Virus record (IMG/VR): IMGVR_UViG_3300025012_000035
Location: 1-64,000 of that record
DNA: 64,000 bases
Direction: 5' to 3' (one strand)
From: a virus
A model generated the notes under the pieces. That model saw only the letters and a list, made by a program, of their open reading frames with translations, was not told where the DNA came from and did no database searches. Shown piece after piece: positions 18,170-53,034 of this stretch. Position 1 is the stretch's first letter. The number at the start of each line of letters is the position of its first letter. The translations under genes and the position numbers were made by a program.

Positions 18170-19048
18170 TGATTATTGTTTAGTTAGTTGATTAGATGGA
18201 TTTGATAGATATGTAGGTAGGGTAATTTAAAATTTATTGTAATAGTAGTTGATATATGTTATCGTATATTGATTACTATTTTTTATTTTTAGATATAAAT
18301 TATTGTGTATATTTGTATCTAATATATGTGTTTATGGGTTATAATATGGAGATATTATAGAGATATTATTAGTTGATATGTAGATGTAATATTAAATATA
18401 GTGGATATAGTTGATTTGAAATAGTTTAATAAATATAATAGTTTTGACGAATGATAATTGAAATGAATTATTTGATTTAATTTGTTTGCCGATAGCATTC
18501 GCAGTCGTTGACTATCTGTATGTAGTAGTAGAATAGATGTTGTGTATATGATAATGATAATCACTCTCATTTTTGTAAACTACACCCCACCATGCTCATC
18601 TCTTCTGAATCTCTCCACATAATAAACCTTATGCGAAGTTATTATGGTAAATAGTGGTAGTATAGGAAATTGTTAGGTTATTTGTTGGGTAGGTGTAAGG
18701 TGTTGACCTGTTGGTTAGCTGGTACATAAAAATACATACTAAAAATAAACTTTGATTTTGATTGAAATAAAGCCTAAATAAGAAGAGATAATTTTGAATA
18801 GGTATAATATGACCTGAGAAATGAAATAAAGGTGAAATATGTAGTTATTTTGATTATATCTGATAAAATATGAATGCTTTATATCCTGGTTAATTAATTG
18901 ATCAATTGATCACAGGATTAATAAAATTGGTTCACTTGTGAAATGTGAGGTGGAACATTATCACCGGGAATAAATTATTACCAGGTACTAAGTCGGAATA
19001 TATAACAAGAAATTTTTTGTTGAACTATTAAATAAGAATAAATCCTAA

Positions 19049-19104
19049 ATAAGAATCATTCCTATCTAGTAAATTTTCCTAATAAATAATGATTCTTATC
19101 CACA
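19049..19104. other. Inverted repeat with DnaA box at the strand-composition switch
   Basis: ATAAGAATCATT (19049-19060) and AATGATTCTTAT (19088-19099) are perfect complements. The consensus DnaA box TTATCCACA occupies 19096-19104, overlapping the right arm. It is a candidate origin element. Confidence 0.55.
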
Positions 19105-20049
19105 TAATTGTATCAAATATCAAACAATTAACTCATAACTATATCCATATAATACAATAATAAATACCACAACACATAATATTATTATCTACTACACATA
19201 GTAATCAAAACTACATCATGTAATAATAAATACCATATCACATATTATACTATATCTATATTATCTATCTAATACGCCTATAGCCTATCTACTATATAAC
19301 TAATACATAGACCAACACAAGTCATTAAACACCACTAATATATATACAACTATATAACTATACAACACTTCAAACAAAGCTATACTACTAATACACTATT
19401 ACCATTATACAATCTAATATACACTCACTATATATTACATCATACTACCATATTATATATACATTGCTACCATACTATGCTACTATTTATATCAGTATCA
19501 TGTTATCACATTATTACTATCTCGTTACCACTGGTAATATATCATACTACCAACTATATCATACCTATATCATATTTTATATTACAGTCTATGCTACCAG
19601 ATACACAATACATAAGCTAACACCTATATACTAGCCTTATTACTATATACCATAGTTTACTACTACCAAACTGCTACCATATCAAACGGTATCACCTAAA
19701 TATCACTCCAACCCAATCCTAACATCAACTCCAACATCACAAAGTATCACCTAAATACTACCAAATCCAAATCCCTTTATTCTCAATTCTCTATACACCT
19801 ACACGCCAAAATAATTATACCCAACTTAAAACTTCTCATATCACCTTTAAACCATATTGTAGAATACACCAAATTTAAGCCTAAAATAAAATAACGTATA
19901 TTAGCACCTAAGCACTATAAATATAATTTTACCTACACAAAAACCCTCCAATCAATCATATTAACTATTCCAAAATTTCATATATAAATAACCTAAAATC
20001 CATCTAAAATAACCTCAATCACACAACACTCCAACCAATCCAACCACAT

Positions 20050-20198
20050 CATTTTGTTACACTATAGTATCATTTTGCTACACTATTGTCACATTCTGAT
20101 CATCCTACTATACCTCTACTATACATACACTGTTCCATTTCAACATACACTGTTCCAATATAGAACATATAACCGTTCCATTACGATACACATTTCCA
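20050..20198 (+). repeat. Two phased iteron arrays
   Basis: Array 1: CATTTTGTTACACTAT, CATTTTGCTACACTAT and a degenerate CATTCTG start at 20050, 20071 and 20092, exactly 21 bases apart. Array 2: ATACACTGTTCCA at 20126 and 20146, a partial ...CGTTCCA ending at 20180, and ATACACATTTCCA at 20186, a period near 20. Two helical turns per repeat is typical of Rep or ParB binding sites. Confidence 0.7.
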
Positions 20199-20363
20199 AA
20201 CTACCACATCAACCTTTAAACTAATCAATATACCCTCCAATATATCCAACCAAACAACGCAAAAAACCTACTAAAATCAACACTTTCAGCCCTCTGTATA
20301 ATCTATACCCTCTTAGGGTATACTACAAATTATAAATATAATTTTGGCATGATTCTTGCAATA

Positions 20364-20397
20364 TATAATAGTGTAAGTCTTCTTTGAAAACTACACA
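20364..20397 (+). promoter_or_regulatory. Promoter -10 and boxA-like element of the structured RNA
   Basis: TATAAT at 20364-20369 has only a weak -35 (TTTTGG, 16 bases upstream). CTTTGAAAACTACACA at 20382-20397 resembles the boxA antitermination element of Bacillota rRNA leaders; 13 of these bases recur at 29754-29766. Confidence 0.45.
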
Positions 20398-20399
20398 TA

Positions 20400-20565
20400 G
20401 GCAGGGAGTACGGCGAATAAGTGACCGAGCGACGATACTGCAAAAGCTGCATGAGGGTAGCCAGTGGAAGGACTGAAAAGTCTGGGCTATGGGTGGATTA
20501 CCACACAGGGAGAACATGCGGAACATGCAAGGAGCAGGTGGACGGTGCCAGAACTGCATAAATCC
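20400..20565 (+). ncRNA. Probable structured RNA, family unknown
   Basis: A G+C-rich, purine-rich island in very A+T-rich DNA, without a convincing ORF. Local stems are visible: GACT-GAAA-AGTC nested inside GTAGCC...GGCTAT (20457-20490), GTGG-ATTA-CCAC (20492-20503), two CATGC copies (20515 and 20524) that can pair with GCATG at 20449, and GCAG...CTGC (20534-20557). It is followed by a long leader hairpin. It is not RNase P, SRP, tmRNA, 6S or a riboswitch class I can recall. Confidence 0.5.
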
Positions 20566-20635
20566 TTTTTAAAGCCTTCAACTATCTTTTATTTACTATG
20601 TTTTGCTTTAACTTTGAAGGTTTTACAAAGGGTTT
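20560..20635 (+). repeat. Long leader hairpin before 20657
   Basis: AAATCCTTT (20560-20568) pairs with AAAGGGTTT (20627-20635), and GCCTTCAA (20574-20581) with TTTGAAGG (20613-20620). The 3' arm runs into the AAAGGAGG site of the next gene, so it could control its translation. Related hairpins occur at 23301 and 23594. Confidence 0.6.
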
Positions 20636-20656
20636 ATAATAAAAGGAGGTTATAAC

Positions 20657-20941
20657 ATGAAATCAAAATTTGAATACATAATAGACCGTGACGACAATAA
20701 GAAAATAACTGGCAGGTCAGTACAAATAACTATAACAGCCAGTACCTTAGAAGATGCAGAAAAGGCTTTATCACATTTTGAAATTTATTTAAAACTGAAT
20801 ACAAATAACAATTATCATTTTTCTGGTTGTCCTTGGGAGTGTAAAGCAAAAAACAATAATTGGCAATATGGCGATACTATAGTAGTTGATGACAAGGAAG
20901 AAGCAGAAGAAATTAAAAAGTATTACAAAAAGTGGAAATAA
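20657..20941 (+). CDS. Hypothetical protein
   Basis: 94 aa, AAAGGAGG upstream. The first half is beta-rich (SVQITITASTLEDAEKAL), the middle has CPWEC, and it ends in a basic helix KKYYKKWK. It is the first gene of the rightward mini-gene array and lies behind the structured RNA and its hairpin. No family recognised. Confidence 0.7.
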   Translation: MKSKFEYIIDRDDNKKITGRSVQITITASTLEDAEKALSHFEIYLKLNTNNNYHFSGCPWECKAKNNNWQYGDTIVVDDKEEAEEIKKYYKKWK

Positions 20942-20946
20942 TAACA

Positions 20947-20988
20947 ATACTCCTACACTGTTGATAAAATCGCTTGGTGTAGGAGTAT
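20947..20988 (+). terminator. Hairpin after 20657 gene
   Basis: ATACTCCTACAC (20947-20958) pairs perfectly with GTGTAGGAGTAT (20977-20988). It has almost the same arms as the hairpin at 21715-21757 and lacks a T-run, so it may be an mRNA-stabilising or regulatory element and not a standard terminator. Confidence 0.5.
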
Positions 20989-21714: not shown

Positions 21715-21757
21715 ACTCCTACACTGCCACCTAACCAGGTAAATATAGTGTAGGAGT
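21715..21757 (+). terminator. Hairpin after 21024 gene
   Basis: ACTCCTACACT (21715-21725) pairs with AGTGTAGGAGT (21747-21757); same arm sequence as at 20947, different loop. Confidence 0.5.
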
Positions 21758-23194: not shown

Positions 23195-23706
23195 CAATAT
23201 AACATATAATTTATTTTCCGTTAGCCTACTAGAAATGGTAGGTTATGGGAAGGTAAATATAGTATAACAGGAGGTAACACCAATGTAGAGGCTAAAAAAC
23301 CTCTTATAAAGTCCTTCTACACTCTTCCTCCAACACATAACAAAAGAAGGATTTTATAAGGAGTGCCTAACCGTAACATGGGATGTATTGAAACAGTATA
23401 ACAAAGATATCTTTAATTTGCATATTGCCAAAAATCCATATAACAGCTCACCACCAACCACCATGCAATATGTAATCTAAAGGTATTTTAATATTTACCT
23501 TAATATAACATATACATAATATAACAATATCAACCAAATATAAGGAGGTTAACACAATGGAACAAATAAGCTGGTTGATGCAGGGATGAAAACAAATCCT
23601 TTGTAAAATACCTTATAACAGTAAGCAACAAGCATTATACATATAACAAAATAAGGTATTTTACAAAGGATTTATAACAGACAACTAAATTAAGGAGTTG
23701 ATATTA
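23195..23706 (+). promoter_or_regulatory. Double leader region with micro-ORFs and long hairpins
   Basis: Two similar units lie in these 512 bases. Unit 1: GGAGGT, then ATG-TAG (23283-23288), then a near-perfect stem 23301-23318 with 23345-23363. Unit 2: AAGGAGG, a 10-codon ORF MEQISWLMQG (23557-23589), then a perfect 23-bp stem 23594-23616 with 23651-23673, then the SD of the 23707 gene. The order micro-ORF, hairpin, SD suggests translational attenuation. Between them is a 7-codon ORF (MGCIETV) and two small hairpins. Confidence 0.5.
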
Positions 23707-24789: not shown

Positions 24790-24799
24790 TATAATTTAA

Positions 24800-24834
24800 G
24801 TCTACCTTAACCGGGTAGGCTTTTTTATTTTGTC
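24800..24834 (+). terminator. Rho-independent terminator
   Basis: GTCTACC pairs with GGTAGGC (one G-U), followed by T6. Confidence 0.75.
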
Positions 24835-25190
24835 CATTTTTAAATCCATAATTTCCCTAATACCCCAAATCCTCTATAACAGACCAACAAAAACCACCTT
24901 CCATATAGTTCCATAACAGCACATCATAATCCAACCTACCATAAATTCCCACAAATAACTCTTTACATTCAATTCTCAATATGTTATAATGAAATTTACC
25001 GACGCTATTATATATACAATCTATACAATATCCATCAATTAATCATCAATTCATCAACAAATTAAAAAGAAAGGAGGACAGAAGAAAATAGATATAATAA
25101 TATTGCTAAATGTCAATAGTTTTTTATAGAATTGTATAAATAATATGTAGAAAAAGAAAAATAATAATCAATTAGATTAAAGCCAAACGA
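24835..25190. other. C/A-rich non-coding stretch
   Basis: About 355 bases. The first 150 are C/A-rich on the plus strand with two TATAACAG/CATAACAG words. ATGTTATAATG at 24980 is a possible -10 region for the Rep-like gene. No gene seen. Confidence 0.4.
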
Positions 25191-51360: not shown

Positions 51361-51412
51361 AGTAACTCGTTCTGGTGAGTATAAATAGAACTTTAGGCCA
51401 GAATGAGTTACT
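51361..51412 (+). repeat. 15-bp hairpin between 51115 and 51460
   Basis: AGTAACTCGTTCTGG and CCAGAATGAGTTACT pair with one mismatch. It precedes two SD-like sequences. Confidence 0.65.
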
Positions 51413-51459
51413 GTCTATAATGGCAGGAGGTAGTTAAAATTAGAAGGAGGAATACATAA

Positions 51460-51822: not shown

Positions 51823-53034
51823 GTGAATTTTATACTAATATACAAAACAATAACCGTACCAGTTAATTGTAATAAATCAGATTATCAATATTTAATGCAA
51901 TGTAATAAATATTCAGCAATAATATGGAATAACTGTGTTAAAGAAGACCAAAAGAGCAGAAAAGAACATAATAAATCACTAACAAGATCAGAATTGCAAT
52001 TTATGATGAAGAAAACAGTGCCTATAATTCTTGCTAATAGTATTAATATGGTAATATTTAAGTACATTACTGCAAGAGATTCTATGTGGAAATCAATAAA
52101 AGCGAAACATGAAAATAGTAAAAAGGTTAAACTGCCTTATAAGGAGAAAAAATATTTTAATACTGGTTGGACTCATCAGAATATTAAAATATATAAAGAT
52201 AAAGGATATTTAACCTTAAGTAAACCAGTGTTAGCAGATGAGCAAGGTATAGATAGAAAACAAAAACCATTAAAATGTCACATGAGAGAAATACCAGATA
52301 ATATTGTAGAGATTGAATTGGTTTATCGAAACGATTTGTATCTTCTGATAAAAACTAAAAATATTAACGATAACATTTTAATTCAATCCGATAATGAGGC
52401 AAGTATTGATTTAGGAGAAATACATAGTATTACAAGTATTGATAATAATGAGAATGCAATAATTATTACAGGTAGAAAACTAAGAGAAGTAAAACAACTA
52501 AGAAATAAACATATGGGGAAATTAAAAAGCAGGAGAAGTAAATGCACAAAAGGTAGTAGACAATATAAGAAATATAGCATGGCAATTAAGAGATTAATAT
52601 ATAAAACAGATAAAAGAATTCTAAATATTATACATAAGACTACAAAATATTACCTTGATTACTGTATTAAAAATAATATAGGTAAAGTATATTATGGTGA
52701 TTTAGATAGTTGCACCAGGAATACTAAAAAAGAGAATCGTGGAAGTAGAAAAACGAGACAGAAATTAAATCAATGGAATTATGGATTAATTATATTGGAA
52801 TTAACCAATAAACTAACTAGATATGGTATAGAATTAGTAAAAGTTAAAGAGTATTATACTTCAAAGAAATGTCCAGTTTGTGGATCATTGAATACTCCTA
52901 AAGGTAGAAATTATGAATGTGAATGTGGGTATGTAATGCATAGAGATGTAAACGGGGCAATTAATATCTTAAATGATAATTCAACTTATAAAGTTACAAG
53001 ATACAAAGAATTAAAGTATCTACAAATTATTTAG
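51823..53034 (+). CDS. tnpB: TnpB, RNA-guided nuclease of IS200/IS605 or IS607 type
   Basis: 403 aa. The N-terminal helical part is followed by a split RuvC nuclease: SIDLGE (D196), then a zinc ribbon CPVCG...CECG (350-369) and HRDVNGAINIL (D375). In the usual RuvC-II place the sequence is VYYGDLDS: Gly where Glu is expected, Asp next to it. Glu343 in KEYYTSKKC could be a shifted catalytic Glu as described for rearranged TnpBs. The GTG start lies within GGAGGTG; an ATA eight bases after the SD is an alternative. No TnpA transposase is nearby, so the element is non-autonomous or domesticated. The guide RNA would come from its 3' end. Confidence 0.85.
   Translation: MNFILIYKTITVPVNCNKSDYQYLMQCNKYSAIIWNNCVKEDQKSRKEHNKSLTRSELQFMMKKTVPIILANSINMVIFKYITARDSMWKSIKAKHENSKKVKLPYKEKKYFNTGWTHQNIKIYKDKGYLTLSKPVLADEQGIDRKQKPLKCHMREIPDNIVEIELVYRNDLYLLIKTKNINDNILIQSDNEASIDLGEIHSITSIDNNENAIIITGRKLREVKQLRNKHMGKLKSRRSKCTKGSRQYKKYSMAIKRLIYKTDKRILNIIHKTTKYYLDYCIKNNIGKVYYGDLDSCTRNTKKENRGSRKTRQKLNQWNYGLIILELTNKLTRYGIELVKVKEYYTSKKCPVCGSLNTPKGRNYECECGYVMHRDVNGAINILNDNSTYKVTRYKELKYLQII

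What the first reader, a model, noticed from the sequence alone, without database searches (positions are those of the whole stretch)
20364..20565. Unassigned G+C-rich structured RNA at the head of the mini-gene array
About 165 bases of G/A-rich sequence stand out sharply from the surrounding A+T-rich DNA. They contain several nested stems, including a GAAA-capped helix inside a longer stem, and follow a -10 element and boxA-like sequence. No ORF with an SD explains them.
Basis: partly seen in the sequence, partly recalled or inferred. Interest (0 to 1): 0.7.

Follow-up and report, generated by a model that had tools for sequence, protein, structure and literature searches.

The report
New structured RNA heading gene array
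A short stretch of unusually G+C-rich DNA in a bacterial phage- or plasmid-like element encodes a highly conserved folded RNA, matching no catalogued family, in front of a group of small, rapidly exchanged genes; it is probably a leader RNA that helps those genes to be transcribed, but that function is inferred, not shown.

Summary
The 150-base window at 20401 is 55% G+C in a record averaging 26% (next highest window 43%). No Rfam family matches. One other element (L112) carries the same sequence: 20350-20590 is identical except 7 substitutions, all inside one 14-base hairpin. They change three base pairs on both sides and keep a GNRA loop (GAAA to GUAA), although the elements otherwise differ by 6-19%. 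This favours an RNA over the short ORFs. The '-10' overlaps a perfect sigma54-type site (TTGGCATGATTCTTGCA), also kept where the RNA is absent; its predicted start, 20371, is the first base of the 5' hairpin. 'boxA' is not supported. The RNA lies between this promoter and a Shine-Dalgarno followed by unrelated genes in the two elements; the first strong terminator is at 24798. Best mechanism: a gene-independent cis leader RNA, most simply an antiterminator like put, EAR or canT (inferred). Main rival: a stable trans-acting RNA. No third copy was found, so only one helix has covariation support.

The parts
20123..20157 (.). two direct repeats ACATACACTGTTCCA, 20 bp apart; possible activator sites (inferred)
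   Evidence: repeat region also found by blastn in L117-L119
20305..20321 (.). palindrome ATACCCTCTTAGGGTAT, possible regulator site (inferred)
   Evidence: kept 40-41 bp ahead of the promoter in L112 and L117-L119
20344..20360 (+). sigma54-type -24/-12 promoter TTGGCATGATTCTTGCA; predicted start 20371 (inferred)
   Evidence: TGGCA-N6-TTGCA once in the window, 0.06 expected; kept in L112 and L117-L119; Clostridiales consensus TTGGCATNNNNNTTGCT in PMC6615313
20371..20396 (+). 5' hairpin GUGUA...UACAC containing the boxA-like string
   Evidence: outer pairs predicted with probability 0.98-0.99; identical in L112
20400..20558 (+). G/A-rich structured RNA core, 159 nt
   Evidence: covariance model R1
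20470..20483 (+). GNRA-capped hairpin, the only variable part: GGACUGAAAAGUCU here, GGGUAGUAAUACCU in L112
   Evidence: three pairs changed on both sides, loop stays GNRA
20558..20637 (+). long 3' hairpin abutting the core, ahead of the SD; like other intergenic hairpins of the array
   Evidence: pair probabilities near 1; similar hairpins
20657..20941 (+). first mini-gene behind the RNA (94 aa); an unrelated gene occupies this place in L112
21024..24789 (+). further mini-genes of the probable transcription unit
   Evidence: no strict + strand terminator before 24798; no intergenic sigma-A site of 10/12 or better before 23.7 kb
24798..24822 (+). first strong intrinsic terminator behind the RNA

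Best explanation
The segment is a conserved, structured, noncoding RNA made as the 5' leader of a mini-gene operon in an A+T-rich phage- or plasmid-type element, probably of Clostridia. Transcription starts near 20371 from a sigma54-type promoter under an upstream regulator and runs through a 5' hairpin, the 159-nt G/A-rich core and a 3' hairpin into about seven small genes, up to the terminator at 24798. The leader works in cis and independently of the genes behind it. The simplest such role is antitermination: the folded nascent RNA binds the elongating polymerase so that it passes the hairpins between the exchanged genes, as put, EAR and canT do. Shown: composition, conservation, one compensated hairpin, a conserved promoter-like module, exchange of the next gene. 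Inferred: the transcript and its start, sigma54 use, and the antitermination step.
For: Outlier composition. 20350-20590 identical to L112 except 7 changes within one hairpin, three pairs compensated and GNRA loop kept, against 6-19% divergence elsewhere; clustering by chance about 4e-10. Promoter and palindrome conserved, also in a lineage without the RNA. No strict terminator between RNA and first gene or before 24798. The constant block ends at the SD and the next gene is unrelated in L112, which fits a gene-independent role. Hairpins lie between the following genes.
Against: Only two copies; one helix tested. No measured transcript. The hairpins between the first genes are not strict terminators, so the need for antitermination there is unproven; many later genes have their own promoters and terminators. 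L117-L119 do without the RNA. Neither sigma54 nor its activator is encoded in the record. Folding energy is not above shuffles.
Confidence: 0.4

Rival explanations
1. A stable trans-acting noncoding RNA or RNA-protein particle with its own sigma54-type promoter, released from the leader by cutting near the 3' hairpin; the genes behind it are bystanders.
For: Nearly every core base is fixed, as in RNAs with a complex tertiary fold; the gene behind it changes; orphan RNAs without known partners are carried by phages, such as ROOL and GOLLD (PMC12286853).
Against: No terminator ends the RNA ahead of the first gene; it runs directly into an SD.
Confidence: 0.3
2. A cis leader acting on the first gene only: a riboswitch, translational switch or mRNA stabiliser.
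For: Position directly upstream of the SD and a long 3' hairpin next to it.
Against: The first gene is unrelated in the two elements while the leader is unchanged; the SD lies outside the predicted hairpin.
Confidence: 0.15
3. A small protein: the 46-codon GTG ORF 20421-20561 with two CxxC pairs.
For: Frame open in both elements.
Against: All differences fall in four adjacent codons and restore a stem; no silent change elsewhere; poor SD spacing; no Pfam match; the other crossing ORF is broken in L112.
Confidence: 0.03
4. A recently acquired G+C-rich insert with no function, shared by two elements through recent exchange.
For: Outlier composition and a sharp block of identity.
Against: Seven changes in 14 nt and none in the other 226 nt do not fit a neutral recent copy; they restore pairing.
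Confidence: 0.06

Closest known systems
canT antiterminator of Tn916 (PMC11658703)
   Same: orientation-specific element probably acting as a cis RNA in a Gram-positive mobile element, ahead of element genes interrupted by terminators
   Different: 452 bp, tested experimentally; no sequence similarity seen to anything in the plasmid collection; here the promoter looks like sigma54-type and function is untested
putRNA of phage HK022 (PMC9378689)
   Same: structured RNA just behind a promoter; acts without regard to the gene downstream
   Different: about 70 nt with two stem-loops; this core is 159 nt with a different predicted fold
EAR of the Bacillus subtilis eps operon and conAn2 of pLS20 (as described in PMC11658703)
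   Same: RNA elements of Gram-positive bacteria that promote read-through of long operons
   Different: no Rfam match of any kind and no match in the plasmid collection; conAn2 works with a protein, ConAn1
ROOL and GOLLD RNAs (PMC12286853)
   Same: complex orphan RNAs carried by phages and prophages; function unknown
   Different: ROOL (659 nt for the solved one) and GOLLD (often over 800 nt) are far longer and often near tRNA islands; no tRNA in the window, no Rfam match

Membership tests
any Rfam 15 family | covariance-model score at or above the family's threshold | tested here: not met
   no match to the island at gathering score; nothing over the core with E up to 5; none for L112
structured RNA | compensatory changes in predicted helices | tested here: met
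   three pairs of one hairpin; all other helices invariant, hence untested
RNA processive antiterminators (put, EAR, canT) | raises read-through of terminators in cis | not testable with these tools
   needs a reporter assay
RNA processive antiterminators (put, EAR, canT) | located in the transcript ahead of a unit with terminators | tested here: inconclusive
   ahead of a co-directional array, but the first strict terminator is at 24798 and a new promoter follows at 24962
boxA-dependent (nut/rrn-type) antitermination | a boxA sequence above chance and accessible | tested here: not met
   not above chance with one mismatch; predicted paired
sigma54-dependent promoter | GG-N10-GC -24/-12 elements | tested here: met
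sigma54-dependent promoter | dependence on sigma54 and an enhancer-binding activator | not testable with these tools
   neither is encoded in the record; the host is unknown
ROOL / GOLLD large RNAs | length above 500 nt and match to the family model | tested here: not met

The most novel reading that the evidence does not exclude
A previously undescribed class of RNA antiterminator, driven by a sigma54-type promoter and placed ahead of a slot of exchangeable mini-genes, so that any gene landing there is transcribed.
Probability: 0.2. Interest if true: 0.75.

Novelty: new member of a known kind. Interest (0 to 1): 0.48.

Why it matters
It adds a well-delimited RNA without a catalogued family to the short list of conserved structured RNAs in large A+T-rich phage/plasmid elements, with two natural variants that can serve directly as test constructs. 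If it is an antiterminator, it would extend RNA-only control of read-through (put, EAR, canT) to a sigma54-type promoter and a fast-changing gene array, and help explain how such arrays stay expressed while their genes are exchanged.

Tried and rejected
Rfam at gathering and permissive thresholds on window, record and relatives: no family. blastn to phages and plasmids: short chance pieces only. Four exact-pattern scans of viral contigs: only L112; the other hits score as chance with the covariance model. A 17-mer in GTDB genomes: 21 hits; blastn against the RNA extends none of them beyond about 30 nt, so taken as chance. Covariance model on 1.4 Mb of held sequence, 11 related records and 391 genomes of one class: nothing beyond the two copies. 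Homology to the larger G/A-rich island at the same place in G001 (L113:14157-14757): not detected by blastn or the model; the global alignment is not convincing. boxA: not above chance and paired. One operon for the whole array: rejected because of internal promoters and terminators. Protein-coding reading: rejected. Sigma-A reading of TATAAT: no acceptable -35 at 16-18 bp, and the start it implies would cut into the 5' hairpin.

Full report
What the window is. The window is bases 1-64000 of a 142,796-base IMG/VR record. It carries FtsK/SpoIIIE, ParB, UvrD-like and integrase genes at one end, then a long run of nearly all + strand genes from 20.6 kb to 141 kb. A 683-aa protein of the record belongs to phrog_1735 and has relatives in many large phages, the nearest being Clostridioides phage pCD1602_4 at 64% identity. 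The host is unknown; 'Clostridia' rests on that relative and on base composition and is inference.

The observation. The 150-nt window at 20401 is 55.3% G+C; the record mean is 25.9% (sd 4.8%) and no other window passes 42.7%. It is G/A-rich, directly after a G-poor 2-kb stretch. Its folding energy is no better than that of dinucleotide shuffles, so stability alone does not argue for an RNA.

Comparison. Relatives were found through the neighbouring 246-aa protein (alignment A3), giving eleven loci. L112 holds the same island. From 20350 to 20590 the two are identical except for seven substitutions inside 20470-20483: GGACUGAAAAGUCU becomes GGGUAGUAAUACCU. Three pairs change on both sides, the outer G-U and G-C pairs stay, and the tetraloop remains GNRA. 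On the other strand the loop would be UUUC or UUAC, so the GNRA rule points to the + strand. Three double changes that all restore pairs have a chance of about 0.09 under uniform substitution, so covariation alone is moderate. The clustering (all seven in a given 14 of 240 positions: about 4e-10) and the lack of change in the other 226 nt, against 6% (best gene) to 19% (backbone) divergence, are the stronger part. If the hairpin was replaced in one event, these count as one observation.

Coding alternative. Two sense ORFs cross the island. The 63-codon one (20464-20655) meets a TAG at its fourth codon in L112 (sequence). The 46-codon one (20421-20561) stays open, but all its differences fall in four adjacent codons with no silent change elsewhere; its SD is poorly placed and it has no Pfam match. 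A loose SD filter of mine did accept these frames, so the SD argument alone is weak.

Promoter. TTGGCATGATTCTTGCA (20344-20360) is a perfect -24/-12 site. TGGCA-N6-TTGCA occurs once in the window where 0.06 is expected, and the wider motif occurs 9 times in 1.36 Mb of this and related sequence. L112 and L117-L119 keep it, with the palindrome ATACCCT-N3-AGGGTAT starting 40-41 bp upstream; L117-L119 are identical here and count as one lineage. The Clostridiales consensus is TTGGCATNNNNNTTGCT (PMC6615313). With the C of the -12 element at 20359, the start is 20371, which is the first base of the 5' hairpin. The promoters of other array genes are sigma-A-like. No sigma54 or activator domain is encoded in the record, so a host would have to supply them.

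Anatomy behind the promoter. 5' hairpin 20371-20396; core 20400-20558 with predicted stems 20401-20404/20554-20557 and 20447-20453/20515-20521 and hairpins 20470-20483 and 20493-20504; 3' hairpin 20558-20637 abutting the core; SD and first gene at 20657. The 3' hairpin resembles hairpins ahead of other array genes. In L112 the sequence is nearly constant up to the SD and then an unrelated gene follows. In L117-L119 the same promoter module leads straight to a protein gene. G001 has a different, larger G/A-rich noncoding island at the same place, not detectably related.

Transcription unit. No strict terminator lies on the + strand between the RNA and 24798, and no intergenic sigma-A site of 10/12 or better before 23.7 kb; a sigma-A promoter follows at 24962. 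Terminators (14 against 1.6 expected) and promoters (40 against 11) are enriched at array genes. So the RNA most likely leads a unit of about 4.4 kb, not the whole array.

Function. Independence from the next gene speaks against a gene-specific riboswitch. Two readings remain: a cis leader acting on elongation, like put (PMC9378689), EAR, conAn2 and canT (PMC11658703), or a stable trans-acting RNA. I put the first slightly ahead because the RNA runs without a terminator into an SD and because hairpins lie between the genes behind it. I hold the noncoding structured RNA at about 0.9, a cis leader role at about 0.55 and antitermination proper at about 0.35; the last two are inference.

Limits. 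Two copies only; one helix tested by covariation; no expression data; scans of metagenome contigs were not available.

Noticed in passing
window 18170-20300: About 2 kb of noncoding, strongly G-poor DNA (GC skew about -0.5 to -1.0) with 15-21-bp direct repeats; parts are conserved in L112 and L116-L119. Possibly an origin or partition region.
   Followed up: partly
window 51365-51435: Pistol ribozyme a few hundred bases upstream of a TnpB-like gene at 51823-53034.
   Followed up: no
L003:9489-9558 (record 92989-93058): RAGATH-18 RNA just behind a TnpB-like gene; RAGATH-18-derived RNAs are described as TnpB guide RNAs (PMC11061315).
   Followed up: no
L113:14157-14757 (record G001): A different, larger G/A-rich noncoding island at the same place, ahead of the array, with no Rfam match and no blastn match in phages or plasmids.
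   Followed up: partly
L050:1501-1516 and about 1814-1831 (record G001): Two sigma54-like -24/-12 sites on the strand opposite to the array in noncoding, A+T-rich DNA.
   Followed up: no
window 23594-23673, 20947-20988, 21715-21757: Long perfect inverted repeats between mini-genes, directly ahead of SDs; a recurring intergenic hairpin type of the array, with T-runs inside some.
   Followed up: partly
L005:6678-10383 (record about 129.5-133.2 kb): RNA ligase, RlaP-type nucleotidyltransferase and CCA-adding-like genes in a row: a possible RNA repair cluster.
   Followed up: no
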